A stretch of DNA of 34,936 nucleotides, taken from a virus. Positions 431 to 34,119 of this stretch are shown here, piece by piece. The stretch lies in IMG/VR virus record IMGVR_UViG_3300031521_000217, positions 1 to 34,936 of that record. One strand, 5' to 3'. The first letter of the stretch is position 1. The number at the start of each line of letters is the position of its first letter. The notes beneath the pieces were generated by a model, which was not told where the DNA came from, did not search any database, and saw only the letters and a list, made by a program, of their open reading frames with translations. Position numbers and translations under genes: made by a program.

Positions 431-1321
431 ATGGGTAAAAAATTAACAACAGATGAATTTATACATAAAGCAAAAGATGTTCACGGCAACAAATTTGATT
501 ATCATTTAACGAATTATATAAATTATGACACAAAAGTTAAAATTATTTGTCCAGAACACGGTATAATTGAACAAACACCTAGAACACATTTAGAAAATGA
601 TTGTAAAAAATGCTGTATGCAAAAAAGAGCTAAAACAACAGAAGATTTTATAAATGAATCTAAAATTGTTCATGGTGACTTATATGAATATTCATTAGTT
701 AACTATATAAATAGAGTAAAAAAAGTAAAAATAATTTGCAAAGAACATGGAATATTTGAACAAATTCCATATTTACATTTAAAAGGTTGTATATGCTATA
801 AGTGTTTCGCAAAAAACAAATGTGAGTCAACAGAAGATTTTATTGAAAAATCAAAGATTATACATGGTGATAAATATGAATATTTCTTAGTAAAATATGA
901 AAATGTTACAACTAAAATAAAAATAACATGTAAAACTCATGGTGTTTTTGAACAATCACCAAGTTCACATTTACGTGGTTTTGGTTGTCAAATTTGTAAA
1001 AATTCTAAAGGTGAAGAAAAAATATCAGAATTTTTAAAATCAAAAGATATAAAATTTGAAAGAGAAAAAAGATTTTTAAATTGTAGAAATATATTACCAT
1101 TACCATTTGATTTCTATATTCCAGAACATAATACTTGTATTGAATTTGATGGTGAACAACATTTTGTTGAAAAACCAGAATGGAATAATAATTTAGTAAA
1201 TATACAAAAACGAGACGAAATAAAGAATATATACTGTAAAGAAAACAATATTCTTCTATATAGATTTAATTATAAAGAAATTGACGATATAGATAAAAAA
1301 TTAGATAAAATATTCATATGA
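431..1321 (+). CDS. Free-standing homing endonuclease: DUF723-like repeats plus Vsr-like nuclease
   Basis: The 296-residue protein has three tandem copies of a roughly 60-residue module (about residues 7-65, 70-128, 132-190) of the pattern T-x-E-x-F-I-x-K-S/A-K-x-V/I-H-G-D-K-Y-E-Y, then C-x-x-H-G-x-F-E-Q-x-P-x-x-H-L and a C-x-x-C pair. This is the DUF723 type, probably zinc-stabilised and DNA-binding. The C-terminal part (about 195-296) has DFYIPEHNTCIEFDGEQHF, typical of the Vsr/PD-(D/E)XK-like fold in homing endonucleases. It is expected to cut phage DNA and promote its own spread. Its stop overlaps the ATG of the next gene (ATGA, 1318-1321). The family call is strong; the target site is unknown. 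Confidence 0.85.
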   Translation: MGKKLTTDEFIHKAKDVHGNKFDYHLTNYINYDTKVKIICPEHGIIEQTPRTHLENDCKKCCMQKRAKTTEDFINESKIVHGDLYEYSLVNYINRVKKVKIICKEHGIFEQIPYLHLKGCICYKCFAKNKCESTEDFIEKSKIIHGDKYEYFLVKYENVTTKIKITCKTHGVFEQSPSSHLRGFGCQICKNSKGEEKISEFLKSKDIKFEREKRFLNCRNILPLPFDFYIPEHNTCIEFDGEQHFVEKPEWNNNLVNIQKRDEIKNIYCKENNILLYRFNYKEIDDIDKKLDKIFI

Positions 1322-2096: not shown

Positions 2097-2654
2097 ATGA
2101 AATACATAAAATCTTTCGAATCATACAAAATAGAAATACTACCACCATTTTATAGTCATCGCTCATATTATGAACTTCCAGATTATTTTAATGATGGTGA
2201 TTTATTTGAATATTTTAAGTTAACATATATAGATGAGCATCATTATGATGATTATGAATATGATGAGTATGATGATTCTCACTATAACACTGAATATAAA
2301 GATAAAGATAGAAAAAGTTGGAGAGATATAGATTATTGTAATTATAAACTTGATAGTGTAAAAAGATTAAGAGTATTAAGAAGTGATATTTTAAGTTATA
2401 TCAATGACTTTTATAGATTTGATGATAACTACAAAAAATATGGATTTGATTACACACCAAACATTACAGATTTTAATTTTATTTGGGATTTTAATTCAAA
2501 AAATGAAGATAAAGAACAAATAAGAACTCTAAGATGTTTATCTATAAAAACATATTCTGGTACATATAAAACAAAACCAGATGAATCAGAAGAACTAATT
2601 AAATATTTATCTGATCCTGAACTTTATTTAAATACGAAAAAGTACAATTTATGA
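2097..2654 (+). CDS. End-tagged family protein, acidic Tyr/Asp-rich core
   Basis: A 185-residue protein with the shared N-terminal tag MKYIKSFESY and C-terminal NTKKYNL. The core is unusually rich in Asp, Tyr and His (HHYDDYEYDEYDDSHY at about residues 48-63), followed by a more regular part with FNFIWDFNSKN. No domain is recognised. The stop codon overlaps the ATG of the next tagged gene (2651-2654), so translation is probably coupled. Only two bases separate it from the gene before. Confidence 0.8.
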   Translation: MKYIKSFESYKIEILPPFYSHRSYYELPDYFNDGDLFEYFKLTYIDEHHYDDYEYDEYDDSHYNTEYKDKDRKSWRDIDYCNYKLDSVKRLRVLRSDILSYINDFYRFDDNYKKYGFDYTPNITDFNFIWDFNSKNEDKEQIRTLRCLSIKTYSGTYKTKPDESEELIKYLSDPELYLNTKKYNL

Positions 2655-2953
2655 AATATCTAAAATCTTTTGAATCAGAAAAAAAATTTAATATTGGCGA
2701 TATCGTAGTTGCTAAAGATGTAAGACAAGCGACAGATATCAATTCTAAAGGTGAATGGAATTGGCAAAATCCAAAATTTATAGGTAAGATTATAAAATAT
2801 AGTAATTGGGCAATGCAATATGTAATACTAGTTGAAACATCTAAATATGAAGATGAAAGATATGTTCCAAAATCAAGAATAATGAGATTAGCAAATCCAA
2901 AAGAATTAGAAGAATATAATTTAACAATATCAACAAAAAAATACAATTTATAA
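2651..2953 (+). CDS. End-tagged family protein with SH3-like GDIV core
   Basis: 100 residues: tag MKYLKSFESEKK, then FNIGDIVVAKD, a pattern typical of small SH3/KOW-like beta barrels, continuing with GKIIKYSNWAMQYVILVE, and a C-terminal module MRLANPKELEEYNL...STKKYNL. It is the last plus-strand gene before a terminator, with stop TAA and no downstream start, yet it keeps KYNL. That argues the terminal peptide is selected as protein rather than as an initiation site for a next gene. Confidence 0.82.
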   Translation: MKYLKSFESEKKFNIGDIVVAKDVRQATDINSKGEWNWQNPKFIGKIIKYSNWAMQYVILVETSKYEDERYVPKSRIMRLANPKELEEYNLTISTKKYNL

Positions 2954-2987: not shown

Positions 2988-3632
2988 TTAAGCTATCATA
3001 GAATTTTTATGATTTGAATATATTTTAAATAATAGTTCTTTAAGATTTTCAGTTTTTCCATCTGTAAAATTCATATTTTTTAATTGAATAATAATCTCAC
3101 AAATTTTAGTCTTATCAAATTCTAGATATTTGTTTGTTTTAAAATTGTGCTCAATTTTAAATAATTCTTTTTCTGAATTACCAGGAATACACATATCTGA
3201 AATCACCTTTGTATCTTCTACAATTCTAGTTCTAGATGTAGCATCATAATTAGAATCATCTATATCATCAGTAACAATTTCTTTTATTTGCTTAGCTAAG
3301 CTATTAGCCAAAAATATTTCAGATTTTTTAAAGAAATCTTCTGGATCAATTCCATTAATTTCTTTAAAATTATGCAGAAATAAAATTTTCTGAATTTTAC
3401 TACCATCATCTAACATATAATATGTAGAATCTTCTGTTAACACTTTCACCACATTAGTAGGATCAAATTTTGACTCATATACTTTATCTATAAAATCCAT
3501 ATCATTATCTTTTAAATATTTTTTAATAAGGTCTTCAATAAATGAACTTTTATTGATGTTTCTTTCTGTTGCTAATAAATCAAATGCCGAATATAATGAA
3601 TCGTCAATTGAATAGGTTTTTGTTGTTTTCAT
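2988..3632 (-). CDS. Ribbon-helix-helix N-terminal DNA-binding protein
   Basis: The 214-residue protein starts MKTTKTYSIDDSLYSAFDLL and continues ERNINKSSFIEDLIKKYLKDN, a good match to a CopG/Arc-type ribbon-helix-helix domain in residues 1-43. The remaining 170 residues are not recognised; they may form an effector or oligomerisation domain. A transcription regulator is the natural reading. It is divergent from gp46, and the 137-base intergenic region holds three 13-bp direct repeats, a plausible operator. The sequence gives no direct evidence of its targets. Confidence 0.75.
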   Translation of the reverse strand: MKTTKTYSIDDSLYSAFDLLATERNINKSSFIEDLIKKYLKDNDMDFIDKVYESKFDPTNVVKVLTEDSTYYMLDDGSKIQKILFLHNFKEINGIDPEDFFKKSEIFLANSLAKQIKEIVTDDIDDSNYDATSRTRIVEDTKVISDMCIPGNSEKELFKIEHNFKTNKYLEFDKTKICEIIIQLKNMNFTDGKTENLKELLFKIYSNHKNSMIA

Positions 3633-3682
3633 ATAACTTTGATTGTTTTTTATTATATATTTAATTATTTAAGTCCAAAATG

Positions 3683-3721
3683 TTATTTTTAACATTTATT
3701 TTTAACATTTATTTTTAAAAT
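3683..3721 (+). repeat. Three tandem 13-bp repeats, possible operator
   Basis: TTATTTTTAACAT occurs at 3683-3695 and 3696-3708, then TTATTTTTAAAAT at 3709-3721. They lie between the RHH gene (start 3632, minus) and gp46 (start 3769, plus). RHH proteins often bind tandem short repeats, so autoregulation and control of gp46 is inferred. Confidence 0.55.
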
Positions 3722-3768
3722 AAAATAATTTTTATAACTTTTTCAAATTATTCATATATAATGTGTAT

Positions 3769-3990
3769 ATGATAATTAAATCCATTTCACTTAGAAACTT
3801 TAAATCTTTCGGAAACAACACACAATCCTTAGATTTTAATACCACTACAGGTGACTTAATACTTTTTTCAGGTAGTAATGGTGCTGGCAAGTGCCTTTCT
3901 CCTGATACTGAAATAGAAATCATTGTTGAAGATGATGAAACAATGTTATTGTTGCTTAATTTTATTAAAAACAGAAATAAACCATTATAA
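3769..3990 (+). CDS. 46: gp46-like recombination ATPase, N-terminal extein plus IntN of split intein
   Basis: Start chosen at ATG 3769 (MIIKSISLRNFKSFGNN); an in-frame GTG at 3763 adds only two residues. Residues 1-41 are the N-terminus of an SbcC/T4 gp46-type ATPase, ending in the Walker A sequence FSGSNGAGK. Residue 42 is the first of an intein, CLSPDTEIEIIVEDD, matching intein block A with catalytic Cys1. The fragment ends after 32 intein residues at TAA 3988-3990. It lacks block B and the rest of the ATPase, which are coded at 5225-7207. The product should act only after trans-splicing, giving a roughly 580-residue protein, close to T4 gp46 in length. Confidence 0.85.
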   Translation: MIIKSISLRNFKSFGNNTQSLDFNTTTGDLILFSGSNGAGKCLSPDTEIEIIVEDDETMLLLLNFIKNRNKPL

Positions 3991-5587
3991 GCGATTAATA
4001 TATACAATAAAAACACTATGAGACTAAATAATGATAAATTTTTCAAACATTTTAAAGAAGATTATCTTTTATACTTAAATGATTCTTTTAAAAACAAATC
4101 TATTACTTATATTAAATTAGATATTAAAAAACAATTTAAAAAATTACAAATTAAAAACAATTTAAAAAGATTAACAATAAGAAATATTGATTATTGGTTA
4201 ATAAGAGGTTGGAGTTTAGATGAGACATTAATAAAAATAAAAAGTTTTAAAGATAATTGGAAAACAATTAAATATTCTATATTGAATATAGAATACTGGA
4301 TAAATAAAGGATACTCTTATGAAGATGCAAAATTAAAAAAAACAGAAATACATAAAGACAGAGGTGCTAAAGCGGCAAAAACTAGATTATCTGATCCGAA
4401 TCACAAAAAAATGATATCACCATTTACAGAAGAATATTGGATAAATAAAGGTTTCACAGATAAAGATGAAATAAAAATAAAAATAAATTCACAGCGAAAA
4501 AATAATATAAATTACTGGTTAAATAAAGGTTTTAGCGAGAGCGAATCTAAAATAAAAGTTTCTGATTATCAAAAAGAAAATAGTCAAAAATCAATAAAAA
4601 ATTGGCAATCTAAAAAAGGGACACCAGAATATAACAAAAAACAAGTAACAAATATAGAATATTATATTGATAAAGGTTTTTCTATTGAAGAATCTGAAAA
4701 ATTATTAAAAGAAAGACAAACAACTTTCACATTAGAAAAATGTATTATTAAAAATGGTATAGAAAAAGGAACCGAAATATTCAATAATAGACAAGATAAA
4801 TGGATTAAAAAAATGTTTAATGAAAATACTTGTATGTCAACAGGTAGAAGTTTGATGTCAGATAAATTTATTGATAAAATAATAGAAGCTATAAATGATA
4901 ATAATATAACAAAAAATTTTTTATATGGTATAGACGAAAGATTTATATATGATAAAATATCAAAAAAGGCAAATAGATATGATTTGTGCTATAATAATAA
5001 AATAATAGAATTTAATGGTGATTTTTGGCATAGTAATCCTAAAATTTTTAAGGCGGATGATATACACAGAATAAAAAAAATAAAATGTTCAGATATTTGG
5101 AAATCAGATAATAGAAAAATAGAATCAGCAAAAGAGCACAATTATGAAGTTTTAATTATATGGGAATCAGAATATATAAATAATGAAACTGAAATAATAA
5201 ATAAATGTAAAAAATTTTTAATAGATGAAAATTAGTTTAAAAGATTTATATGACTTCAACAATGAAACTGGATTAGTAAACAGTGGAAATATAAAAGTTG
5301 AAACTATATCAGGCTTCAAAAAAATTGAAGCTGTAGACATTACAGCAAAAAATTCAAAAAAAATTATAATAAAAACTGAAAGTTTTCAAATTTCAACTTC
5401 ACCAGAACATCTATTATATAAAAAAGATTGGGAAAAATCTAAAAATTTAAATATTGGCGATTATATAGACACTATAAATGGATATGAAAAAATAATAGAT
5501 ATAAAAAACGATAATACTAAGCAAGACTTATTTGATATTCAAGTAGAAGGATCCGAATTTATTGCTAATGGTATAAGAAGCCATAAT
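3892..5587 (+). mobile_element. Atypically split intein with embedded homing endonuclease gene
   Basis: The element runs from the Cys1 codon (3892-3894) to the last Asn codon (5585-5587). IntN is 32 residues, IntC is 121 residues, and an independent Vsr-like endonuclease ORF (4018-5235) separates them. The insertion lies between the Lys and Ser of Walker A (GSNGAGK | SS), a conserved site of the kind inteins favour. Block A (CLSPDTEIEI), block B-like (TSPEHLLY), NIGDYI and blocks F/G (LFDIQVEG...ANGIRSHN followed by Ser) are visible. The architecture matches published fractured genes, and the short IntN matches atypically split inteins such as AceL-TerL. Confidence 0.85.
4018..5235 (+). CDS. 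Vsr-like homing endonuclease inside the split intein locus
   Basis: 405 residues. The N-terminal two thirds carry at least five imperfect repeats of YW-x-N-K-G-F/W/Y-S-x-E-x-A/S with basic spacers (for example EYWINKGYSYEDAK, EYWINKGFTDKDE, NYWLNKGFSESES, EYYIDKGFSIEES), probably DNA-contacting modules. The C-terminal part holds RYDLCYNNKIIEFNGDFWHS (ending near residue 337) and later EHNYEVLIIWESEY, the Vsr/EDxHD nuclease pattern. It would cut intein-less gp46 alleles. It is 27 bases downstream of the IntN stop in the same frame, and its end overlaps the IntC start by 11 bases, so the three ORFs appear translationally linked. Confidence 0.85.
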   Translation: MRLNNDKFFKHFKEDYLLYLNDSFKNKSITYIKLDIKKQFKKLQIKNNLKRLTIRNIDYWLIRGWSLDETLIKIKSFKDNWKTIKYSILNIEYWINKGYSYEDAKLKKTEIHKDRGAKAAKTRLSDPNHKKMISPFTEEYWINKGFTDKDEIKIKINSQRKNNINYWLNKGFSESESKIKVSDYQKENSQKSIKNWQSKKGTPEYNKKQVTNIEYYIDKGFSIEESEKLLKERQTTFTLEKCIIKNGIEKGTEIFNNRQDKWIKKMFNENTCMSTGRSLMSDKFIDKIIEAINDNNITKNFLYGIDERFIYDKISKKANRYDLCYNNKIIEFNGDFWHSNPKIFKADDIHRIKKIKCSDIWKSDNRKIESAKEHNYEVLIIWESEYINNETEIINKCKKFLIDEN

Positions 5588-7207
5588 TCATCTTTTCAAC
5601 AATCATTTGACTTTTCATTATTTGGTATAGTGAGAGGTAAAAATGGTAAAAGAGTTCCGCAAACAATACTTCCTAATAGAATAAACAAAAATCTTGAAGC
5701 AGAAATAGAATTTATCAATAATACATCAGATGTTATAAAAATTTCAAGAGGTTTAGAACCAAACTATGCTAAAATTGTCATAAATGATTTAGATGAAACT
5801 AAAAAATTTAAAAATTTTAAAAAAGAAGATAGAGACAGTGTTATAGGTTTTGATTTTGAAACATATAAAAGTTTCATTTCAATGTCAGTATCTGATTTTG
5901 CAAATTTTATAGATTTATCACCTGAAGATAAAAGAAATATAATAAATAAGCTATTCAATATTCAAGATTTAGATAACTATCTATCATTAAGCAATGGATT
6001 GATTAAACAAGCGAATGATGAAAAATTAAAATATGAAACTATTGTTGAAGCAAACAACACAAACATTACAGCACTAAATCAAAATATAATTAACATTAAA
6101 AGGAATGGTGTTATTGATAAAGATAAAGAAATAATAAAACTTGAAGCTGAAAAAAATTCCAAAAGAGATCCATTTATACAGTTAAAAAAAGATATTTCTG
6201 ATTTTGATGAAAAATTAAATTCTTTGGAGAAAAAAAGACAAGATTTGGAGAATCAAAGAAATATTATTTATAATGATATACTTGAAATTAAAGTTGATGT
6301 TAAAAATTCAAATAATAAATTAAACATTTATAATTCTGGCTCTTGTCCTGTATGTGGAACAGAATTAAATGATGAAAAGCATTTACATGATTTAAGTGAT
6401 ATTAAATCCGAATGCGAATCTTTTGGAGAAAAACTTCAAATCTTGGAGAATAATAAAAACACTTTAACACTAACTTTAACACAAATTTCTAATCAAAAAG
6501 AATCATTATATAAACAAAAAAGTAATACAACTATCAAATTAAACAATTTAATTTTTGAATTAAAAACAATCACTAAAAAAATATCAGAATTAAAAGAAAC
6601 ATCAAATGATATATCTATATCTGAACTAGAAAAAAACATAAACGATATTAAAAATAAAAATATCGAAAATATAAAAATAATAACTGAAGCTGAGAAACAA
6701 ATTGAGATTTATAATGAGTTAAAAACTGTTTTCTCTAACAATGGAATAAGAAAAAGTATTATTAAAAATATTGTTAAGCCAATAAATGTATATTTAAAAG
6801 ATATCTTAGATGAAATGAAATCAGAATATAGTGTTAAGATCGATGATGAGTTCAATGTCAATATATATGAGAGAATGATAAATGAAGTGCATGCAGAGAG
6901 TTTATCTATGGGAGAGTCTAAAAAAATAAACATATCCATAGCACTTTCATATTTGAAATTAATATTAAAATTTAGAAAATTAAACATTTTATTTTTAGAT
7001 GAGGTTTTTTCAAGTATGGAACCAGATAGTGTAGAATATGCATTAAATGTACTTAAACAATTCTCAAAAGAATTTAATTTAAATATTATCATACTTGATC
7101 CTAAGGTTTATTTTAAAGATGATTCGCCTGGATATTCAATGTTTGATAGAGTTATTAAAATTAACAAAAAATTAAAATTCTCAATCTTAAATGAAGAAAA
7201 AATATAA
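5225..7207 (+). CDS. 46: gp46-like recombination ATPase, IntC plus C-terminal extein
   Basis: Residues 1-121 are the C-terminal intein part (MKISLKDLYDFNN... to GIRSHN); Ser122 is the +1 extein residue. The rest continues the SbcC/gp46 ATPase: SSFQQSFDFSLFG completing Walker A, a long coiled-coil region with a zinc-hook-like CPVCG at about 374-378, ABC signature LSMGESKK near 560 and Walker B ILFLDEVFSS near 590. With its gp47 nuclease partner (not in this window) it would process DNA ends for recombination-dependent replication. Start ATG 5225 overlaps the endonuclease end. There is no functional ATPase without splicing. Confidence 0.9.
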   Translation: MKISLKDLYDFNNETGLVNSGNIKVETISGFKKIEAVDITAKNSKKIIIKTESFQISTSPEHLLYKKDWEKSKNLNIGDYIDTINGYEKIIDIKNDNTKQDLFDIQVEGSEFIANGIRSHNSSFQQSFDFSLFGIVRGKNGKRVPQTILPNRINKNLEAEIEFINNTSDVIKISRGLEPNYAKIVINDLDETKKFKNFKKEDRDSVIGFDFETYKSFISMSVSDFANFIDLSPEDKRNIINKLFNIQDLDNYLSLSNGLIKQANDEKLKYETIVEANNTNITALNQNIINIKRNGVIDKDKEIIKLEAEKNSKRDPFIQLKKDISDFDEKLNSLEKKRQDLENQRNIIYNDILEIKVDVKNSNNKLNIYNSGSCPVCGTELNDEKHLHDLSDIKSECESFGEKLQILENNKNTLTLTLTQISNQKESLYKQKSNTTIKLNNLIFELKTITKKISELKETSNDISISELEKNINDIKNKNIENIKIITEAEKQIEIYNELKTVFSNNGIRKSIIKNIVKPINVYLKDILDEMKSEYSVKIDDEFNVNIYERMINEVHAESLSMGESKKINISIALSYLKLILKFRKLNILFLDEVFSSMEPDSVEYALNVLKQFSKEFNLNIIILDPKVYFKDDSPGYSMFDRVIKINKKLKFSILNEEKI

Positions 7208-13196: not shown

Positions 13197-13484
13197 ATGA
13201 AAATCAAAAAATTTAATCAAATATTAGAAAATTCGGATTTTGATACATCGGAAGAAGTCTTATGGGTTTTTTATGGTAAATATTCTACATATTATGAAAA
13301 AATTGAAACATGTTATTCATTAGACGAATGTATAGAATGGTATGATAGTACTACTCGTGATGATACATCAAGATTTTTTATTGGAAGTAAAATTTATACT
13401 AAAATTGTATTAGTTGAAGAAACAATAAATTCTAAAATTCTAGATATAAATGATATTGTTGCAGCAAAAAAATACAATTTATGA
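13197..13484 (+). CDS. End-tagged family protein, first of a six-gene array
   Basis: 95 residues: MKIKKFNQILENSD at the N-terminus, an unrecognised core with VLWVFYGKYSTYYEKIETCY and RFFIGSKIYTKIVLVEET, and ILDINDIVAAKKYNL at the end. The Leu-Glu-Asn after Phe gives it an F-x-x-I-L-E-N pattern shared with the products at 18422 and 19321. The stop overlaps the next ATG (13481-13484). No domain assignment is possible. Confidence 0.78.
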   Translation: MKIKKFNQILENSDFDTSEEVLWVFYGKYSTYYEKIETCYSLDECIEWYDSTTRDDTSRFFIGSKIYTKIVLVEETINSKILDINDIVAAKKYNL

Positions 13485-14122
13485 TAACCACATTTAAAAT
13501 ATTTGAGAAAGTTGAAAGAACATTTAATGTTGGTGATATTGTCATATATACAAGACGGGAACCAGTAACATCATATAAAACCAGAAGATCATATCTACCT
13601 AAAACATATGATGCAAAATATGGTGATGAGTGTGAAATAACTGAAGTTAAAGGTGAAAAAGGTGCACTATATGTAAAAGCAAAAAACACAAAAACAGGTA
13701 AATATATAAATAAAGTTTTAAACGAAGGTGGATTCATATCAATTAGAAATCAATATGGACATTGGCTTGAAGCTAAATATTTTTTTAAAAAACCTGAAGT
13801 TTTTTCTTGGGATATATTTTCAGCAATTCAGTATGAAAACATTGAGGCAGTATCTGAAATATTAAGAGAAGATAATGCAATAATATATACTCACAACATA
13901 CAATCACATTCATCACCTTTGATTTGTGCTGGATATTCTAATAATTATGATATTATAAAATTATTAGTAGACGCTGGTTCAGATTGGACAGCAAAAAACG
14001 ATCAAAATAATGATTTTATGCATTATATAAGTGATGACATTAAAGAAAAACTAATACAAGATTATCCAGAAAAATATGAAAATTATTTGACAGAAAAAGA
14101 AGCAGAAAAATACAATTTATGA
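13481..14122 (+). CDS. End-tagged protein, SH3-like domain fused to ankyrin repeats
   Basis: 213 residues combining two core types of the family. After MITTFKIFEKVERT comes FNVGDIVIYTRREP...GDECEITEVKG (about 18-95), an SH3/KOW-like barrel. Then come ankyrin-type repeats from about 105 (IFSAIQYENIEAVSEILRED, SPLICAGYSNNYDIIKLLV, DAGSDWTAKNDQNNDFMHYI). The end is LIQDYPEKYENYLTEKEAEKYNL in two parts, closely matching the ankyrin gene at 14355. It appears to be a fusion of neighbouring modules. ATGA overlaps exist at both ends. Confidence 0.8.
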   Translation: MITTFKIFEKVERTFNVGDIVIYTRREPVTSYKTRRSYLPKTYDAKYGDECEITEVKGEKGALYVKAKNTKTGKYINKVLNEGGFISIRNQYGHWLEAKYFFKKPEVFSWDIFSAIQYENIEAVSEILREDNAIIYTHNIQSHSSPLICAGYSNNYDIIKLLVDAGSDWTAKNDQNNDFMHYISDDIKEKLIQDYPEKYENYLTEKEAEKYNL

Positions 14123-14358
14123 AATATTTAAAAAGATTTGAAACATATGAAAGATATCTTTTAGCGGATTATGTTATGGGTAAAACTAAATTTTCTAAAA
14201 ATGAGATATTTTGTAAAATTATAGAAACAGAACCTTATCTTGTTGAAACGATATATGGTAAAACATATTTAGAATCACAAGATATTTTAAGAGAACTGAC
14301 ACCAGACGAAATAGAAGACTTTAAAATTCAACTAACATCAAATAAATATAATTTATGA
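14119..14358 (+). CDS. End-tagged family protein, 79 residues
   Basis: Tag MKYLKRFETYERY, a short core (YVMGKTKFSKNEIFCKIIET, YLVETIYGKTYLESQDI) that could be a reduced SH3-like barrel, and the C-terminal module LTPDEIEDFKIQLTSNKYNL. It is the smallest member in this array and shows clearly how little lies between the two conserved ends. ATGA overlaps join it to both neighbours. Confidence 0.78.
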   Translation: MKYLKRFETYERYLLADYVMGKTKFSKNEIFCKIIETEPYLVETIYGKTYLESQDILRELTPDEIEDFKIQLTSNKYNL

Positions 14359-14717
14359 AACACTTAAAAACTTTTGAAAACACTAATGTACAAAGCAGAC
14401 TATTTGATTATATTAGAATTTATGGAAAAAGAAATATTAATAAAATTAAAAATTTACTTTTTAAAAATAAAAATATGGATTTAAACTGTTTTGATCGTGA
14501 CGGAATGACACCATTAATGTGGGCATCATATGGTGACAATTTAGAGATTTTAGAAATGTTGATAGATGCTGGTGCTGATTGGAATGTAAAAGACAGTGAA
14601 GGTGATGATTTTTTAACATATACTCTAGGAGGAACAGAAAGAGATATAATAAAAAAATATCCAGAAAAATATAAAGAATATCTATTTAAAAAAGAAGTAG
14701 AAAAATATAACTTATGA
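14355..14717 (+). CDS. End-tagged ankyrin-repeat protein
   Basis: 120 residues: MKHLKTFENTNVQSR, then ankyrin-type units (NINKIKNLLFKNKNMDLNCF, DGMTPLMWASYGDNLEILEM, LIDAGADWNVKDSEGDDFLT), then IIKKYPEKYKEYLFKKEVEK and KYNL. The codon for Asn in KYNL is AAC and not AAT, a silent change against its neighbours. It probably binds a protein partner. The C-terminal 40 residues are close to those of the preceding-but-one gene at 13481, supporting duplication. Confidence 0.82.
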   Translation: MKHLKTFENTNVQSRLFDYIRIYGKRNINKIKNLLFKNKNMDLNCFDRDGMTPLMWASYGDNLEILEMLIDAGADWNVKDSEGDDFLTYTLGGTERDIIKKYPEKYKEYLFKKEVEKYNL

Positions 14718-14980
14718 TATATATTAAAAAATTTGAAAGTTTAGATATTGAAAAATCGAGATACAAAGAAGGTAATATTGTAAAAATCATAGATACTGAT
14801 ACTGATGATATTGGAATGATTGATTATTGTGGCTACATTAATGATAAATATATTTATACTATTAAAACAATACAAGGAAGTCGTATGAGATTCTATTATG
14901 ATGATGATTTACAATTAGCATCAAAAGATGAAATTAATCTATTCCTAGCAGCAAATGCAGCAAAAAAATATAATTTATGA
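14714..14980 (+). CDS. End-tagged family protein with SH3-like core
   Basis: 88 residues: MIYIKKFESLDIEKSR, then YKEGNIVKIIDTDTDDIGMI and DYCGYINDKYIYTIKTIQGS, consistent with a small SH3-like beta barrel, then LASKDEINLFLAANAAKKYNL. The Ala-rich run just before KYNL is shared with the gene at 13197. It overlaps both neighbours by ATGA. Confidence 0.8.
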   Translation: MIYIKKFESLDIEKSRYKEGNIVKIIDTDTDDIGMIDYCGYINDKYIYTIKTIQGSRMRFYYDDDLQLASKDEINLFLAANAAKKYNL

Positions 14981-15288
14981 AAAATTTAAAAAGTAAGTCA
15001 GAATTCATTTTAGAAAACATGAAACATATACTATTATGCGTCAAGTCAACTGATCCAGACTTCTATTGGAAATTTACAAAAGGTAAAAAATATACAATAT
15101 ATTTGTCAAAATTTGGAACTAGATTAAAAGATGACAATAATAAATTTTGTTGTATTGATGGTTGGAGAGACTTTAATTATTTAAATACAAATGTTGATGT
15201 GTTTGAATATGCAGATGGAATATTCACAACAGATAATACATTAGAAGATTATGAGTTAAGAATACAATCTGAAAAATATAATTTATGA
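14977..15288 (+). CDS. End-tagged family protein, last of array 1
   Basis: 103 residues: MKNLKSKSEFILENMKH, a core with ILLCVKSTDPDFYWKFTKGK and KYTIYLSKFGTRLKDDNNKF (possibly a small beta barrel), and DYELRIQSEKYNL. The N-terminus has F-I-L-E-N, the strongest likeness in this array to a T4 capsid-targeting peptide. It ends the array: although ATGA occurs at its stop, the frame that follows codes only about ten residues, so KYNL is kept without a downstream gene. Confidence 0.78.
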   Translation: MKNLKSKSEFILENMKHILLCVKSTDPDFYWKFTKGKKYTIYLSKFGTRLKDDNNKFCCIDGWRDFNYLNTNVDVFEYADGIFTTDNTLEDYELRIQSEKYNL

Positions 15289-15360: not shown

Positions 15361-17184
15361 ATGAAAGAATTAAAAAATATAATAACAGATAAAGCAAATA
15401 ATATAGGTTCATTATGTTTATTTATAAATAAAAGAGATAACTATGTAAAAGAAATAAACAATTATATTGATAATGAACTAATTGAAAAAACTGATGTGAA
15501 AAAATTATCGTTATCTCAAAAAATATACATATATTTTAATGATGATTCTAACATATTTTGTGATTGTGGAAAGTTAAAAAATTGGAAATCATTCAAATAT
15601 GGTTGGACAAAAACTTGCGGAAATAGAGAATGTATTAATAAAAGTACAATAAATACTAATATTCATTTATATGGTGTTGACAATCCCATGAAAAATGAAA
15701 AAATAAAAAAATTATCACAAGAGAGAACATTTGAAAAATATGGTTTCACATCAGCATCTAAAAATGATGAAATTAAACAAAAAATTAGCATAAAGTTAAA
15801 TAGTAGAACAAAAGAAGAAAAATTAGAAACAATAAAAAAGAGAATAGAAAAATGGGAAAATAAAGATGATGTAGAGAGAAATAAAATAAGTGAGAAAAGA
15901 AAAGAAACAATAAATAACACATCTCTTGAAGATAAAAATAAAACTACAGAAAAGCGAAAGGAAACTTGTTTAAAAAAATATAATAGCGAATATGCTATAA
16001 CATCAAAAGATGTAAGAGAAAAAATATTAAACACTTTTAACGATAAATTTAATGGCAATTCGCCATTTTGTGACAGTAAAGTCAAAAACAAAGCATTAGA
16101 TTCATATAAAAAACAACATATAGAATATATAAAGAATAATGTCAAAAAATCAAATTGTGAATACGTTTCACATATAGATAAAGGAAACGCAAATATTGAA
16201 TATGTTTTATTATGTCTAAGAACAAATAATACTTTTACAATCGGATATTCAAATCTAAGAATTAGAATATTAGGTAGTTTAGAAATATCTCCTTATTTCA
16301 GACAAACACACGGAAAATCTGAGATGGAAGAAAAATTATATCTCTTTATAAAAAAAAATTACAATGGAGAAATATTGATAAATAGTAGAAACATAATATC
16401 ACCAGTAGAGTTAGATATTTACTTACCAGAATTAAAATTAGCATTAGAATTTAATGGATTATATTGGCATAGTGAAGCATATAAAAATAACAACTATCAT
16501 TTAACTAAAACTGAAGAATGTGAAAAGTATGGAATACAATTAATTCAAATTTATGAAGATGATTGGATTTATAAGCAAGATATAATTAAATCTATGATAT
16601 TAAATAAATTAAATAAAAGTGAAAATAAAATATATGCAAGAAAATGTAAAATAAAAGAAATAGCTGACAATAAATTAGTCAGAGATTTTTTAAACAAAAA
16701 CCACATTCAAGGATTTATTGGATCTAAAATTAAACTAGGTTTATTTTATAATAATGAATTAGTAAGTCTAATGACTTTTGGTAATCTTAGAATCGCTATG
16801 GGTAAAAAAGAAACGGTAGAAGGAGAATATGAACTTTTAAGATTCTGCAATAAAATAGATACTAACGTAATTGGTGGTGCTAGCAAATTATTTAAATATT
16901 TTATTAATAATTACAATTCAATTGAAATAATATCATATGCCGATAGAAGTATTAGCCAAGGTAAATTATATGAAACTTTAGGATTTAAATATCAAGGTAA
17001 AACAACACCAAATTATTATTATATTGTTGACGATATTAAACGACATAGATTTAATTTTAGGAAAGATGTATTAGTTAAACAAGGATATGATAAAAATAAA
17101 ACTGAACACGAAATAATGTTAGAAAGAAAAATACTTAGAATTTACGATTCTGGAAATTTAAAATTTATATATACTAAAAAATAA
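15361..17184 (+). CDS. Large homing endonuclease: zinc module, Vsr-like nuclease, Mom-like GNAT domain
   Basis: 607 residues. N-terminal zinc-type module with C67, C69, C86, C91 (CDCG...CGNREC). Then come YGVDNP/KYGF-type DNA-binding repeats and long Lys/Glu helices (100-270). A Vsr-like nuclease carries LDIYLPELKLALEFNGLYWH near 350-370 and IQLIQIYEDDW. The C-terminal domain (about 425-600) has KNHIQGFIGSKIKLGLFYNN, ELVSLMTFG, YELLRFCNK, GGASKLFKYFI, EIISYADRS and GKLYETLGFKYQGKT, which I read as a GNAT fold like that of phage Mom proteins. It closely parallels the protein at 31247. It sits just before a probable structural gene, a common homing position. Confidence 0.82.
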   Translation: MKELKNIITDKANNIGSLCLFINKRDNYVKEINNYIDNELIEKTDVKKLSLSQKIYIYFNDDSNIFCDCGKLKNWKSFKYGWTKTCGNRECINKSTINTNIHLYGVDNPMKNEKIKKLSQERTFEKYGFTSASKNDEIKQKISIKLNSRTKEEKLETIKKRIEKWENKDDVERNKISEKRKETINNTSLEDKNKTTEKRKETCLKKYNSEYAITSKDVREKILNTFNDKFNGNSPFCDSKVKNKALDSYKKQHIEYIKNNVKKSNCEYVSHIDKGNANIEYVLLCLRTNNTFTIGYSNLRIRILGSLEISPYFRQTHGKSEMEEKLYLFIKKNYNGEILINSRNIISPVELDIYLPELKLALEFNGLYWHSEAYKNNNYHLTKTEECEKYGIQLIQIYEDDWIYKQDIIKSMILNKLNKSENKIYARKCKIKEIADNKLVRDFLNKNHIQGFIGSKIKLGLFYNNELVSLMTFGNLRIAMGKKETVEGEYELLRFCNKIDTNVIGGASKLFKYFINNYNSIEIISYADRSISQGKLYETLGFKYQGKTTPNYYYIVDDIKRHRFNFRKDVLVKQGYDKNKTEHEIMLERKILRIYDSGNLKFIYTKK

Positions 17185-18722: not shown

Positions 18723-19010
18723 TTATAAATTATATTTTTTTGCAGATAATTCTTCTGGTGTTAAAGGTATCAATTTATTTTTTTCTATTGTTATTCTACC
18801 ATATTTTTCATCATCTATCACACATATCGCTTGTCCACCTAAAAGTCCACCCAATAAACTCATTTCGCCTTTAACAACATCATCTCTTACAAATTTACAA
18901 TATCTAGTTTCACCAGAATTATCTATATATTTAAATTCGTCACCAGATTTTAAAAAATTAGGTTTTGATAATAACCAATCTTTAAAACTTTCAAATTTTT
19001 GGATTTTCAT
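18723..19010 (-). CDS. End-tagged family protein, SH3-like
   Basis: 95 residues: MKIQKFESFKDWLLSKPNFL, then KSGDEFKYIDNSGETRYCKF and VVKGEMSLLGGLLGGQAICV with a Gly/Leu-rich turn, consistent with a small beta barrel, and IPLTPEELSAKKYNL. The next gene's ATG is one base past the TAA stop, so here there is no ATGA overlap although the codons of KYNL are the same. Confidence 0.78.
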   Translation of the reverse strand: MKIQKFESFKDWLLSKPNFLKSGDEFKYIDNSGETRYCKFVRDDVVKGEMSLLGGLLGGQAICVIDDEKYGRITIEKNKLIPLTPEELSAKKYNL

Positions 19011-19340
19011 AAATTATATTTTTTTATATTCATTTTTATCTCTAATTCTTCTTTTGATGAAGAAAAGTATACAATCTCATTTCTATCAAATCCCATATTA
19101 TTTTGACTTCTTTGGCTTCTTTGATATGGTACTATATCATCAAATTCTACAGTATATGGCAATGATGCTCTATAATTTATATCTATAACCTTTCCAATAT
19201 GAGTATCAATAAAATTTACAAAAATAAAATCTGTAGACTCTGTTGGTTTAACATCCAATATAACATAATCACCAACCACTGGACTTTCGCCTTTTAGATT
19301 TTCAAATCGTTTGATATATATCATAAATTATATTTTTTTG
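18995..19340 (-). repeat. Recurrent gene-junction sequence, array 2
   Basis: The minus-strand junctions near 19007-19010 and 19321-19324 read AAATATAATTTATGA, as in arrays 1 and 3. The two outer junctions of this array (18723 and 19691) keep KYNL coding but use TAA and a one-base gap. Confidence 0.65.
19007..19324 (-). CDS. End-tagged family protein with SH3-like GDYV core
   Basis: 105 residues: MIYIKRFENLKGE, then PVVGDYVILDVKPTESTDFI, FVNFIDTHIGKVIDINYRAS and LPYTVEFDDIVPY, an SH3-like barrel with the same layout as the protein at 33759 (FENFINSNVGRISDI), then EIVYFSSSKEELEIKMNIKK and YNL. The two form a recognisable subfamily in separate arrays, pointing to duplication and transfer between arrays. 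ATGA overlaps lie on both sides. Confidence 0.82.
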   Translation of the reverse strand: MIYIKRFENLKGESPVVGDYVILDVKPTESTDFIFVNFIDTHIGKVIDINYRASLPYTVEFDDIVPYQRSQRSQNNMGFDRNEIVYFSSSKEELEIKMNIKKYNL

Positions 19341-19689
19341 CATCAGCTTTAAGTATATTCTGTTCTATTTGAAGTTTATATTGTTCTATTTCTTCAGGTG
19401 ACATAAATATATAATATTCGTATCCATATCCTTCAACTTTAAAATTAACTCCATTTTTCCAAATTGAAACATCTGTAACTGACAATTTATTTCTTTTAAC
19501 TGTATATGGATGAGGACCAATTTCTGGTATATAAGAATCATCTTTAGATAATTTTATATATTTTTCTATCACAAATTCTGAAAGCAATTTTATAAATTCT
19601 TTACATTTTTGATGTTCAATAATCATAGTTTTAATTGACTTATCAATATCACTATTTTTTTCTAATATTTTAAATCTATCTATCTTCAT
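19321..19689 (-). CDS. End-tagged family protein, unknown core
   Basis: 122 residues: MKIDRFKILEKNSDIDKSIK, a helical segment (MIIEHQKCKEFIKLLSEFVI), a possible beta sheet (TVKRNKLSVTDVSIWKNGVN, FKVEGYGYEYYIF), and MSPEEIEQYKLQIEQNILKA followed by DAKKYNL. The C-terminal helix is longer than in other members. No domain is recognised. Confidence 0.77.
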   Translation of the reverse strand: MKIDRFKILEKNSDIDKSIKTMIIEHQKCKEFIKLLSEFVIEKYIKLSKDDSYIPEIGPHPYTVKRNKLSVTDVSIWKNGVNFKVEGYGYEYYIFMSPEEIEQYKLQIEQNILKADAKKYNL

Positions 19690-19690
19690 A

Positions 19691-20008
19691 TTATAAATTG
19701 TAATTTTTTGTATTTTTTATCAATTCTAAATCATCAATAATTGAAGTAATATTATCATGAACATTAGCAACAAATGATTTATCATGAAACCTAAACTCTA
19801 TTTTATTATCATAAAAAATATCAAAGAACTGTTTAAAAATAGTATAATTTTCAAGTTTTAAAAGTATATTTATTGTAATTGTTATATTATAAAATATTTT
19901 ATGAGTACCACTATCACGAAAAGCCTGTACTCCTAATTTACCAATAAACAATTCATTATCATCTAAATCTAATGTTATATGTTTCTCAAATGTTTTTAAA
20001 TATTTCAT
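19691..20008 (-). CDS. End-tagged family protein, unknown core
   Basis: 105 residues: MKYLKTFEKHITLDLDDNEL, then FIGKLGVQAFRDSGTHKIFY and NITITINILLKLENYTIFKQ, an alpha/beta core not recognised, and IIDDLELIKNTKNYNL, a KNYNL variant of the end. It begins one base after the stop of the amidoligase-like gene, so it is probably cotranscribed with it. Confidence 0.76.
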   Translation of the reverse strand: MKYLKTFEKHITLDLDDNELFIGKLGVQAFRDSGTHKIFYNITITINILLKLENYTIFKQFFDIFYDNKIEFRFHDKSFVANVHDNITSIIDDLELIKNTKNYNL

Positions 20009-29855: not shown

Positions 29856-31217
29856 TTATAACGAAAATATTGAATTTAAAACACTCAAACGTTTATTAAT
29901 TGTTGGTAAACCAATAGGTTCTATGAATCTATTTATAACTGTTAGCATAGTGACATCAAATTGTTCATCATAATCAATTTTTACACCTTCCTTATCAACA
30001 ACTTCATAAGGATGCATTCCTCTCATATATGCAAAAACATTATTCTTTGGATGATTACAATAATAATATTTAATTCTACCACCTCGTATATTATCATACT
30101 TAGTTTTATATGCAGAATTTTTGTTTAACAGATAATTATGCAATGCTGCAGCTTTAACACCAAAATGAGCACCCTTTACAGTTACAACATCAGTCACATC
30201 ATCAATAACCTTAGTTTGATAATTAGAACAACTAGTAGTCATAGATATATCTTCAATATCAGCCATCATAAATTGCTTTTTCAAATCTTTCACCAAAGTT
30301 AATATCTTTCTAATATTAAGATTATTAGGATTCGCAAATATATACCTTAAAAACTCATAAATGTTCTCTCTAACAAATGGTGGAGTTGATGATTTCACAA
30401 TCTCTACACCTTTTGGATAGAAATAACTCAAGTTTTCATAAAAAATACCATCTTCGTAAACAACATTATTAATATAATTCTTTTTTTGTATATGTAAAGC
30501 AGAACGATTAATAGTTTCAAGTTCAAAATTATGTAAACTCTTAACACCAAATCTAGCGGCATATTCATCTAACCAAACATTATACATTCTTTCGATAAAC
30601 ACTTTATCCATATGAAGAATAAAAGACAAATCATCTCCAACAAAGCCAGAAGACTTAATCATTGGCGCAAAAGATATATAAAGTGAATCAGTATCACCAT
30701 AAATTGTTATAGGCACATCCTTAGGTATAGGTTGAACATTAGAAAAATCATGAACATCTCTACGATATAAAACACTATATCCAGATAACTCATGTTTATC
30801 TTCAACTAAATCAATAAAACTATAATTAAGTTTTTCAACCAAATCTTTTAAAGTTGGGTGTGGATAATGAATATTTTCACCATTTCTATCTAATAAATAA
30901 AAACTACCAGCTTTTTCAGCAATATACTCAACTCCAAGTAAAGCATGCGTTTTTATATCCAAATGCCACTCTTTATAAAAATAATGCTCAATTTTTTTAA
31001 GCATATAATTAATTACATCACGCCCCATTGCGGTAATCGCATTAGCAATATGTGAATTAGATAATACAAATTTAGGATGTGCGAAGGCACCGTAAGTTCC
31101 ATTAATTACGAGCTTTAAAGCTAACTGCATAGCTTTTGCTCTATCATAATCGGCTTTCGTCTCATCAATTTTTTTCTTTAATTCAGATATTTTTTGTCTT
31201 TTTTCTGCAGCAGTCAT
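29856..31217 (-). CDS. 43: Family B DNA polymerase, C-terminal half (gp43-like)
   Basis: 453 residues. After a 30-residue charged helical start come motif B KLVINGTYGAF (residues 35-45) and motif C IYGDTDSLY (Asp175, Asp177). Next are the thumb region with KSSTPPFV, and a T4 gp43-like end (INRFIEPIGLP...VLNSIFSL, a possible clamp-binding tail). The exonuclease domain and motif A are absent here, and no matching N-terminal half exists in the window. Between motifs B and C there are about 130 residues, roughly 70 more than in T4 gp43. It follows a homing endonuclease gene, as in other split phage polymerases. Activity would need association with the missing half. Confidence 0.85.
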   Translation of the reverse strand: MTAAEKRQKISELKKKIDETKADYDRAKAMQLALKLVINGTYGAFAHPKFVLSNSHIANAITAMGRDVINYMLKKIEHYFYKEWHLDIKTHALLGVEYIAEKAGSFYLLDRNGENIHYPHPTLKDLVEKLNYSFIDLVEDKHELSGYSVLYRRDVHDFSNVQPIPKDVPITIYGDTDSLYISFAPMIKSSGFVGDDLSFILHMDKVFIERMYNVWLDEYAARFGVKSLHNFELETINRSALHIQKKNYINNVVYEDGIFYENLSYFYPKGVEIVKSSTPPFVRENIYEFLRYIFANPNNLNIRKILTLVKDLKKQFMMADIEDISMTTSCSNYQTKVIDDVTDVVTVKGAHFGVKAAALHNYLLNKNSAYKTKYDNIRGGRIKYYYCNHPKNNVFAYMRGMHPYEVVDKEGVKIDYDEQFDVTMLTVINRFIEPIGLPTINKRLSVLNSIFSL

Positions 31218-31246
31218 AAATATAATTCTTTTTATAATTATATAAT

Positions 31247-32623
31247 TTATTTTATATTTTGTTTAAATAAAAATTTCAAACTACCAGAATCATAAACTCT
31301 ATAATAAGGTAACTCATTCATTATCTCAAATTCTGTTTTATTTTCATCATAACCCATACTAATCAAAACATCTTTTCTAAAATTAAATCTATTATATTTA
31401 TGACATTTTCTATCAAAATAATTATAATTTGGAACTGTTTTTTTAACAAGTGAAAAGCCTAAATTTTCATACATTTTACCAACACTCCAACATCTATTAG
31501 CATAACTAACAACTTCAATTGGTTTATATTTTTCTATAAAAAACTTAAATAATTTACTAGCACCACCAACAATTATAGTATTTAATTTATTACAGAATCT
31601 TAAAAGTTCATAACTATCTTGTGAACTTATGTTTCCCATATTTTTCCTTTGATTTCCAAATGTCATAAGACTCACTAATTCATCGTTATAAAATAGTCCA
31701 AATTTAAATTTTGAACCAACAAATCCCTGTATATGGTTATCTATCAAAAATTTTTTAATAATTTTATTATCATAAATTTCTTTAATTGAACATTTTCTTG
31801 CATATATTTTATTTTTAATTACACCTAATTTATTTAATATCATAGATTCTACTATATTCTTTCTATACATCCAATCGTCTTCCCATATTTGAATTAGTTG
31901 TGTATTATTTTTTTCACACAAATCAGATTTTATAACATGTGCATCTTTATTTTTATATCTATCAGAATGCCAATATATACCATTAAATTCAAATGCAATT
32001 TTTAATTCTGGTATATAAATATCTAATTCTTTATTTATTAAACTATTATCATTTTTAAAAACATCATATTTGCAATTATTGTTTATAAAATCATAAATTT
32101 CAATTTCTTTACCACTTGTTCTATAATAATTGTTACCATATTTATCTAACATAGTTTTTCTACCTTTTTCAATAACATCCTTAGAAGATAGTATTTCGGA
32201 TACTCCATATCTATCTAAAATAGTCTTATCTATTTTACCTTTTGTATCTTTATCTAAAAGTGTAGTTTTAACACCATATTTTTTCATATTACTTTTTGAA
32301 ATTTTATCTTTACATTCTTCAGTTTTTGCATAATTTGTAACACCAAATCTATCCATTGATGTTATTTCTCTTTTATCGTTTGAGCATTTTTTACAGCCAT
32401 AATAGCCACATCTATTTTCATTATCTAAATACTTATAATATGCTATCACAATTTCTTTGCCACACTTGTCACACACTGCTGTTATTTTTTGATGAGAAAC
32501 GTTTGATAAATCTCTTGGATTCACTAATATATTTTGATGTAAAACTGCATCATATCCCATTTTTTTATAATGTGTAATATTTCTATATGAAATATGTACA
32601 TCTATTTTTTCTTCTTTTATCAT
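31247..32623 (-). CDS. Homing endonuclease: zinc module, Vsr-like nuclease, Mom-like GNAT domain
   Basis: 458 residues, a shorter relative of the protein at 15361. VCDKCGKEIVIAYYKYLD-like zinc module (CDKCG, YGCKKC) lies near 50-80. YGVTNY/KYGVK/RYGVSE/KYGNNY repeats lie near 92-165. Vsr-like nuclease LDIYIPELKIAFEFNGIYWH falls at about 200-219. The GNAT-like end has NHIQGFVGSKFKFGLFYNDE, LVSLMTFGNQR, YELLRFCNK, GGASKLFKFFI and VVSYANRC. It lies 29 bases upstream of the polymerase fragment in the same unit, consistent with a role in creating or maintaining the polymerase split. Confidence 0.85.
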   Translation of the reverse strand: MIKEEKIDVHISYRNITHYKKMGYDAVLHQNILVNPRDLSNVSHQKITAVCDKCGKEIVIAYYKYLDNENRCGYYGCKKCSNDKREITSMDRFGVTNYAKTEECKDKISKSNMKKYGVKTTLLDKDTKGKIDKTILDRYGVSEILSSKDVIEKGRKTMLDKYGNNYYRTSGKEIEIYDFINNNCKYDVFKNDNSLINKELDIYIPELKIAFEFNGIYWHSDRYKNKDAHVIKSDLCEKNNTQLIQIWEDDWMYRKNIVESMILNKLGVIKNKIYARKCSIKEIYDNKIIKKFLIDNHIQGFVGSKFKFGLFYNDELVSLMTFGNQRKNMGNISSQDSYELLRFCNKLNTIIVGGASKLFKFFIEKYKPIEVVSYANRCWSVGKMYENLGFSLVKKTVPNYNYFDRKCHKYNRFNFRKDVLISMGYDENKTEFEIMNELPYYRVYDSGSLKFLFKQNIK

Positions 32624-33079: not shown

Positions 33080-33472
33080 CTATAAATTATATTTAGTTGA
33101 GTTTATAATAACATCAAATTCATCTTTACTCATATGAATCCACCCATCGCCACTAATAGCATATTCTTTTACTTGATCAATATCTTTAATTTTTCTTGTA
33201 AAATTAGTAACAGATTCATCTAACAAAAAATATTCACCATCAAGCAAAATTCTTTTATAAAATTCATTAGAATTTATAAACGCATACACTAGATATCTAG
33301 TTGTTTTATATATATATTCCTGTAAGCTATAGCATATTTCATAATCTATGTTACTTTCTTTAAGAAAATTAACAATAGATATCATACCAGAATAATTTTC
33401 ATTTCTAACATGTGATCTTCTATATAATGTTATAAATCTATCTACATTTTCAAATGTTTTTATATGTTTCAT
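33080..33472 (-). CDS. End-tagged family protein, last of array 3
   Basis: 130 residues: MKHIKTFENVDRFITLYRRS, a core with MISIVNFLKESNIDYEICYS and LVYAFINSNEFYKRILLDGE (alpha/beta, not recognised), and HMSKDEFDVIINSTKYNL. It ends with TAG and runs straight into the terminator, so KYNL is kept although no gene follows. Confidence 0.8.
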   Translation of the reverse strand: MKHIKTFENVDRFITLYRRSHVRNENYSGMISIVNFLKESNIDYEICYSLQEYIYKTTRYLVYAFINSNEFYKRILLDGEYFLLDESVTNFTRKIKDIDQVKEYAISGDGWIHMSKDEFDVIINSTKYNL

Positions 33473-33762
33473 AAATTATATTTTTTTGCATTAACTAATA
33501 GTTCAAATTCATCAATAGTTAAAATTTTAAATACTAGGTTTTTAAATTTATTCATTAACATTCTTAATTGTTTTCTTGCTTCTATTTGTGTATAATATCT
33601 TATCATATAATTATCTTCTTCTAAAGTTTCAATATTACTAAAAGAAAAAGGTACCCATTCTTCTGATTCTATACTCACACTAATATCATTAACATCAGTT
33701 GGATCACTATATATTATAACACATTTTTCATCATTATTTTCAAAAGTTTTTATATATCTCAT
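33469..33762 (-). CDS. End-tagged family protein, unknown core
   Basis: 97 residues: MRYIKTFENNDEKCVIIYSD, an alpha/beta core with SVSIESEEWVPFSFSNIETL and a helix YTQIEARKQLRMLMNKFKNL, and ILTIDEFELLVNAKKYNL. The acidic helix before the end matches the L/M-[TS]-x-D/E-E module of other members. No domain is recognised; ATGA overlaps at both ends. Confidence 0.8.
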   Translation of the reverse strand: MRYIKTFENNDEKCVIIYSDPTDVNDISVSIESEEWVPFSFSNIETLEEDNYMIRYYTQIEARKQLRMLMNKFKNLVFKILTIDEFELLVNAKKYNL

Positions 33763-34118: not shown

Positions 34119-34119
34119 A

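What the first reader, a model, noticed from the sequence alone, without database searches (positions are those of the whole stretch)
3769..7207. gp46 recombination ATPase interrupted in its Walker A motif by an atypically split intein
Seen: FSGSNGAGK is followed by an intein-type CLSPDTEIEI and a stop after 32 intein residues. A separate ORF at 5225 begins with the rest of an intein, including block B-like TSPEHLLY and a C-terminal GIRSHN, then resumes with SSFQQSF of the ATPase. Known: such fractured genes with an endonuclease between the halves have been described for other phage-type proteins, and atypically split inteins with about 25-residue IntN occur in terminases (AceL-TerL). Inferred: the ATP-binding site forms only after trans-splicing, so gp46 activity may be delayed or conditional. 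I know of no such case in gp46, though I could not search.
Basis: partly seen in the sequence, partly recalled or inferred. Interest (0 to 1): 0.92.

Follow-up and report, generated by a model that had tools for sequence, protein, structure and literature searches.

The report
Split intein in phage gp46's ATP-binding loop
A phage recombination ATPase gene is broken exactly in its ATP-binding loop into two separate genes with a selfish DNA-cutting-enzyme gene between them, and the two protein pieces carry the halves of a self-splicing element that should stitch them into one working enzyme; the same arrangement recurs in many uncultured phages.

Summary
ORF 3769-3990 encodes 41 residues of a gp46/SbcC ATPase up to the Walker A Lys, then a 32-aa intein N-fragment. 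ORF 5225-7207 encodes a 121-aa intein C-fragment ending SHN, then the remaining 539 ATPase residues from Ser+1. Between them lies a 405-aa Vsr/EDxHD-type homing endonuclease ORF. Joining the exteins gives 580 aa that align gap-free across the junction with an uninterrupted relative (582 aa). The C-fragment matches atypically split inteins by sequence (Cat, VidaL) and predicted fold (VidaL, TM 0.85).

It is not unique. I found 37 further IMG/VR contigs (21 distinct sequences on the tree) with gp46/SbcC fractured at the same Lys|Ser/Thr site, scattered among empty alleles (at least 7 changes). One filled/empty pair shows an exact insertion between flanks 82-85% identical. Window against its closest filled relative shows purifying selection on all parts.

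Most likely it is a mobile fractured-gene element whose host protein is restored by protein trans-splicing: a known kind (Dassa 2009). I found no earlier report for gp46, but could not read the founding paper. Conditional or delayed gp46 activity is untested. Splicing itself needs the bench.

The parts
3769..3891 (+). N-extein: first 41 residues of gp46, ending in Walker A SGSNGAGK
   Evidence: phrog_77 E=3.2e-6 and Pfam AAA_23 1.8e-5 for this short ORF; 73% aa identity to L001
3892..3990 (+). IntN: 32-residue N-terminal intein fragment (Cys1, block A, helix-like tail xLLxFLKNRxxPL) plus stop codon
   Evidence: Block A sequence; homologous fragments at the same site in L093, L099, L101, L103, L105, L169; dN/dS 0.16 vs L093
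4018..5235 (+). Vsr/EDxHD-type homing endonuclease ORF, 405 aa
   Evidence: phrog_22677 9.5e-17; invariant D322, E331, G334, H338, N340, D364 over 15 relatives; two best fold matches Vsr 1cw0 and I-Bth0305I 3r3p, but E 0.05-0.08 only
4930..5205 (+). Nuclease domain of the endonuclease (YDLCYNNKIIEFNGDFWHSNP...IWKSDNRK...VLIIWESE)
   Evidence: Conserved block in alignments A5/A6
5225..5587 (+). IntC: 121-residue C-terminal intein fragment (block B SPEH, block F FDIQV, block G IRSHN); start codon overlaps the end of the endonuclease ORF by 11 nt
   Evidence: PDB sequence match CatC; profile matches VidaL, gp41-1, CatC; AF2 model pLDDT 95.6, best fold VidaL TM 0.85; Pfam Intein_splicing
5588..7207 (+). 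C-extein: remaining 539 residues of gp46 from Ser+1 of Walker A, plus stop
   Evidence: phrog_77 E=3.2e-45 for the ORF; 72% identity to L001 over residues 122-660
6344..6355 (+). Zinc-hook motif CPVC of gp46/Rad50
   Evidence: Invariant C253 and C256 in alignment A1; Rad50_zn_hook E=0.0037
6980..7015 (+). Walker B / D-loop LNILFLDEVFSS
   Evidence: Invariant columns N466, L468, F469, D471, E472 in A1

Best explanation
A mobile 'fractured gene' element (IntN - endonuclease gene - IntC) has inserted between the Walker A Lys and Ser codons of a phage gp46 (Rad50/SbcC-type) gene. Shown by sequence: precise position, both intein halves with the class 1 catalytic residues, a homing-endonuclease ORF with its catalytic residues, empty relatives, purifying selection. 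Inferred: the 73-aa N-precursor and the 660-aa C-precursor associate through the intein halves; Cys1 starts the N-S shift, the chain is passed to Ser+1, Asn121 cyclises next to His120, and a scarless 580-aa gp46 with an intact P-loop results. The endonuclease cuts empty gp46 alleles of co-infecting phages, and repair from the filled allele copies the whole unit; exact restoration by splicing at an invariant motif keeps the element tolerated and hard to lose.
For: Exact empty allele: gap-free 580 vs 582 aa alignment across the junction; uninterrupted Walker A in essentially all of 80 gp46 relatives. Second filled/empty pair L103/L050: exact 1630-nt insertion between Lys and Ser codons, flanks 82-85% identical DNA. 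Intein homology. Same unit in L093 (HEG 65%, IntC 72%) and L099/L100. Window vs L093 dN/dS: N-extein 0.06, IntN 0.16, HEG 0.28, IntC 0.14, C-extein 0.16 (dS 0.8-1.9, so rough). Mobility: against L099, IntC 59% and HEG 50% identical but C-extein only 36%; the filled label needs at least 7 changes on the gp46 tree. In six large contigs with fractured gp46 no intact second gp46 was found: separate N and C parts in five, only the C part in L100, which starts inside the HEG. 72 of 83 HEG-family loci have an IntC ORF starting within about 100 nt of the endonuclease ORF's end.
Against: No splicing or cleavage was measured. Block B has Ser instead of Thr in TxxH. The HEG fold match has weak E-values and the model a low pTM (0.37). 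The window is a 34.9-kb fragment, so an intact gp46 elsewhere in that genome cannot be excluded. Saturated dS limits the dN/dS values.
Confidence: 0.9

Rival explanations
1. RNA-level splicing: the 1.7-kb insert is a group I or II intron carrying a homing endonuclease, and the intein-like sequence is incidental or vestigial.
For: Precise insertion, and the same EDxHD/Vsr endonuclease class occurs in phage introns (PMC3943268; PMC12350094).
Against: No Rfam intron match at the gathering score in the window or up to E=1 in 3700-5700. Both insert ends are coding intein halves under purifying selection with intein fold and catalytic residues.
Confidence: 0.03
2. Broken gene: the insertion killed gp46 (or gp46 is replaced by another nuclease system) and the halves are decaying.
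For: The window is a fragment; the rest of the genome is unknown.
Against: All five segments have dN/dS well below 1 against L093; no frameshifts or stops in either half; no second intact gp46 found in six large contigs with the same fracture.
Confidence: 0.04
3. Domesticated switch: slow or conditional trans-splicing (redox, temperature, late expression) regulates when gp46 becomes active. It could hold on top of the best explanation.
For: The ATP site forms only after splicing; the C-precursor start overlaps the endonuclease ORF, and close HEG/IntC spacing is common, so C-precursor translation may be coupled to it; some other inteins respond to stress (PMC6195587, mycobacterial DnaB).
Against: Scattered presence with many empty alleles, including close relatives, argues against a conserved regulatory need. 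No regulatory signal was identified (promoter scan near chance).
Confidence: 0.1
4. Assembly artefact: two phage populations wrongly joined at a conserved P-loop sequence.
For: Single metagenomic contig.
Against: Same order and junctions in independent contigs from other samples (L093, L099, L100).
Confidence: 0.01

Closest known systems
Fractured genes with split inteins and Vsr-related homing endonucleases (Dassa et al. 2009, doi 10.1093/nar/gkp095; paper not held, known from memory and from its citations)
   Same: Conserved enzyme gene broken in two by a split intein with a free-standing Vsr-type endonuclease gene between the halves; in phages.
   Different: Host gene here is gp46/SbcC; I could not check whether that paper's list of host genes includes it.
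Atypically split inteins VidaL (16-aa IntN), PolB16 OarG (15 aa), AceL-TerL (25 aa), Cat (30 aa) (PMC13014065, PMC10189870)
   Same: Short IntN, long IntC; IntC matches VidaL by fold (TM 0.85) and Cat/VidaL by sequence.
   Different: IntN is 32 aa: a VidaL-like short core plus a conserved tail of about 15 residues; the block N2-like segment (KISLKDLYDF) sits on IntC.
EDxHD homing endonuclease I-Bth0305I (PDB 3r3p) and Vsr (1cw0)
   Same: Nuclease-domain folds ranking second and first; conserved D/E/H/D residues.
   Different: Long helical DNA-binding part of its own; weak E-values; target untested.
P-loop inteins of phage terminases, e.g. mycobacteriophage TerL1-a (PMC5050341) and Ackermannviridae TerL
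   Same: Insertion between the invariant Lys and the Ser/Thr of Walker A.
   Different: Those are contiguous cis-inteins in TerL; this one is split and in gp46.
LR756500 PhoH locus and Tenacibaculum phage PTm1 split PolB
   Same: Same endonuclease family between intein halves.
   Different: Other host genes; PTm1 has the canonical long-IntN split.

Membership tests
Class 1 intein (Hint domain) | Nucleophile at position 1 and block A | tested here: met
   Cys1 in CLSPDTEIEI; Cys in L093, L099, L101, L103, L105, L169, Ser in L106
Class 1 intein (Hint domain) | Block B TxxH, block F Asp, block G His-Asn and +1 Ser/Thr/Cys | tested here: met
   His62, Asp104, His120, Asn121 invariant in 30 IntC sequences; +1 is Ser. 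Block B is SxxH here.
Class 1 intein (Hint domain) | Hint fold | tested here: met
   AF2 pLDDT 95.6; nearly all listed PDB matches with E<1e-3 are inteins or related Hint domains, VidaL first
Class 1 intein (Hint domain) | Splicing activity | not testable with these tools
   Needs expression
Atypically split intein | IntN of about 15-37 aa on a separate ORF | tested here: met
   32 aa, own stop codon; range from PMC13014065
Fractured gene (Dassa 2009 type) | Enzyme gene broken by split intein with a free-standing endonuclease gene between the halves | tested here: met
   repeated in L093, L099 and many others
Fractured gene (Dassa 2009 type) | Endonuclease related to Vsr (EDxHD) | tested here: met
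   Catalytic residues invariant; Foldseek ranks 1 and 2 are Vsr and I-Bth0305I with prob 1.00 but E 0.05-0.08; no sequence-level PDB match
Fractured gene (Dassa 2009 type) | Endonuclease cuts the empty allele and drives homing | not testable with these tools
   Only indirect: element more conserved than host gene, scattered distribution
gp46 / SbcC / Rad50 (phrog_77) | Walker A, zinc hook, signature motif, Walker B; profile match | tested here: met
   phrog_77 3.2e-45; CPVC hook, LSMGESKK, LFLDE; spliced 580 aa vs L001 582 aa
Group I/II intron | Conserved intron RNA structure | tested here: not met
   No Rfam match

The most novel reading that the evidence does not exclude
The gp46/SbcC Walker A is a recurrent homing site for a distinct lineage of atypically split inteins (split before block N2, IntN with a conserved helical tail), carried with a P-loop-associated EDxHD endonuclease family; because gp46/gp47 may itself serve the recombination used in homing, the element sits in a gene that may be part of the machinery for its own spread, and splicing could time gp46 activity.
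Probability: 0.3. Interest if true: 0.7.

Novelty: new member of a known kind. Interest (0 to 1): 0.52.

Why it matters
It adds the phage Rad50 homologue to the hosts of fractured split inteins and shows that the same P-loop site has been invaded repeatedly by intein types with different split points. It offers many natural, very asymmetric split-intein pairs for protein chemistry, including a cysteine-free candidate (L106), and filled/empty allele pairs suited to testing homing by the poorly characterised EDxHD endonucleases.

Tried and rejected
Intron explanation: Rfam at gathering score and up to E=1 gave nothing. Uniqueness: the window-only gp46 search and gp46 relatives showed only empty alleles; the endonuclease searches revealed the filled ones, so the first impression of a unique case was wrong. 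L072 looked interrupted, but its match only starts at residue 28 and I did not resolve it. The IntC of L101 had no match in phage isolates; the IntC of the window and of L117 matched mostly terminase genes there, so I saw no isolate with a fractured gp46. HEG profile against PDB sequences: no match. GTDB scan: only four loci, all in metagenome-assembled genomes. The founding paper (Dassa 2009) is not held.

Full report
Observation. The N ORF (ATG 3769) encodes MIIKSISLRNFKSFG...LILFSGSNGAGK, continues with CLSPDTEIEIIVEDDETMLLLLNFIKNRNKPL and stops at 3988-3990. ORF 4018-5235 encodes a 405-aa protein. ORF 5225-7207 starts with 121 residues ending GIRSHN and continues with SSFQQSFDFSLFGIV. The interval from Cys1 to Ser+1 is 1696 nt, so the halves lie in different frames. 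The joined exteins make 580 aa, aligning gap-free across the junction with the 582-aa uninterrupted gp46 of L001 (IMGVR_UViG_3300020048_000026). L001 is the empty allele, at 72-73% amino acid identity; its 154.9-kb contig has no match to the IntC or endonuclease profile.

Identity of the parts. The C ORF is a gp46/SbcC ATPase (phrog_77, E=3.2e-45; the N piece 3.2e-6) with zinc hook CPVC, signature motif LSMGESKK and Walker B LFLDE. The IntC alone finds the consensus atypically split intein CatC in the PDB (E=3.4e-4) and Pfam Intein_splicing (1.3e-7, slightly below the curated cut-off). A profile of 30 related IntC sequences finds VidaL and gp41-1 (2.4e-18 each) and CatC. Its AlphaFold model has mean pLDDT 95.6 and its best structural match is the VidaL intein (TM 0.85). 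His62, Asp104, His120 and Asn121 are invariant in the alignment. The middle ORF has the invariant D, E, H, D residues of an EDxHD/Vsr nuclease, and its two best structural matches are Vsr and the homing endonuclease I-Bth0305I. Those E-values are weak (0.046, 0.078) and the model's pTM is 0.37, so this part rests mainly on the motif and on the family's context.

Relatives. Searching with the ATPase found only empty alleles: 80 gp46 relatives with essentially uninterrupted Walker A (one, L072, unresolved). Searching with the endonuclease found filled ones. L093 (3300009502) has the same gp46, IntN CLSPDTEIEIFIEDEKTRNLLLEFLKNRKKPF, endonuclease 65% and IntC 72% identical. L099 and L100 (two contigs of about 345 kb) carry a more divergent gp46 with IntN CVSPDTILEIEVDDDIKLQLIEFLEKRNLPL in L099. 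The IntN tail (LLxFLKNR) is thus conserved, and also appears in L101, L103, L105 and L169. Of 83 loci of the endonuclease family, 72 have an IntC ORF starting within about 100 nt of its end. The exteins tested are gp46/SbcC (seven assigned to phrog_77), DnaB-like helicase, an ATP-dependent protease and TerL; LR756500 has the unit in PhoH, and a Pseudomonas jumbo phage annotates the following gene as UvsX-like. Wherever the N half was seen, the break lies in or next to the Walker A motif.

Two intein types use the gp46 site. The window's type splits before the block N2-like segment (KISLKDLYDF is on IntC). The L117/L157 type carries it on IntN (CVGINTLVKVRNTETGEVMELTIGELYN...), the split after helix 1 known from AceL-TerL (PMC13014065). 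So this site was fractured more than once.

Selection and mobility. Window against L093 gives dN/dS of 0.06 (N-extein), 0.16 (IntN), 0.28 (endonuclease), 0.14 (IntC) and 0.16 (C-extein), with high dS. Window against L099 gives amino acid identities of 59% for IntC and 50% for the endonuclease but 36% for the C-extein, which points to horizontal transfer of the unit. On a gp46 tree of 59 sequences the filled state needs at least 7 changes; some filled rows have long branches. The pair L103 (filled) and L050 (empty) has flanks 82-85% identical in DNA and an exact 1630-nt insertion between the Lys and Ser codons. In six large contigs with fractured gp46 no intact second gp46 was found (L100 starts inside the endonuclease, so its N part is missing).

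Mechanism. The best-supported account is protein trans-splicing by a class 1 intein, with the endonuclease driving homing. Position, parts, conservation and empty alleles are shown; assembly, splicing and cutting are inferred. Overlap of the IntC start with the endonuclease stop (11 nt in the window and L093, 4 nt in L099) suggests coupled translation. No evidence bears on delayed or conditional splicing.

Known or new. P-loop insertion between Lys and Ser/Thr is classic for inteins (PMC5050341). Fractured genes with Vsr-type endonucleases and atypically split inteins with 15-37-aa IntN are established (Dassa 2009 as cited; PMC13014065). Full-text searches combining intein with gp46, SbcC or Rad50 returned no such case in titles, abstracts or the papers opened, but the founding paper is not held. 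I therefore rate it a new member of a known kind, with an unreported host gene as far as I could check.

Noticed in passing
window 2097-2953, 13197-15288, 18723-20008, 33080-34933: Eighteen small ORFs end in ...YNL and mostly begin MKxxKxFE; their ends carry the DNA motif AAATATAATTTATGA (22 hits with up to 2 mismatches, 4.6 expected), which often contains the next gene's ATG. It may be a shared translation-start or transcription element rather than a protein motif.
   Followed up: partly
L106:3900-5340: A fractured gp46 whose intein appears cysteine-free (Ser1 IntN SVTPSTEIDVDIP..., Ser+1, no Cys in IntC). PMC13014065 calls PolB16 the only natural cysteine-less atypically split intein; L106 could be another, though its IntN ORF runs to 56 aa.
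   Followed up: no
L101, L103, L105 (about 700-1340 and 3500-7000): Two IntC fragments per contig: besides gp46, a second one a few kb upstream whose extein start resembles that of DnaB-like helicases, so two fractured genes may lie side by side. L101's 42.9-kb contig gives nine IntC-profile matches, five with internal stops.
   Followed up: partly
window 29856-32623 (-): The DNA polymerase B ORF is only a C-terminal part (starts before motif B), with a homing endonuclease ORF (phrog_3339/559) directly upstream and no N-terminal part nearby: a second split gene, with no IntC match.
   Followed up: partly
window 431-1321, 15361-17184, 31247-32623: Three more endonuclease ORFs (phrog_559, phrog_3339), so this 35-kb fragment carries four homing-type endonucleases.
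   Followed up: no
L013:1798 and L014:5001: Two of the closest empty gp46 relatives have unusual Walker A sequences (SGRNAAGKTS, SSENGGGKSS), which could alter the endonuclease target.
   Followed up: no
window 3880-3895: A terminator-like hairpin (GGTGCTGGCAAGTGCC then TTTCTCC) spans the Walker A / IntN junction (1 found, 0.2 expected). Possibly chance.
   Followed up: no
L010:6486-7085, L099:2691-3620: Proteins ending in what looks like a type IX secretion sorting domain (YPNPTTD...), hinting at Bacteroidota hosts for these gp46-bearing phages; judged by eye only.
   Followed up: no
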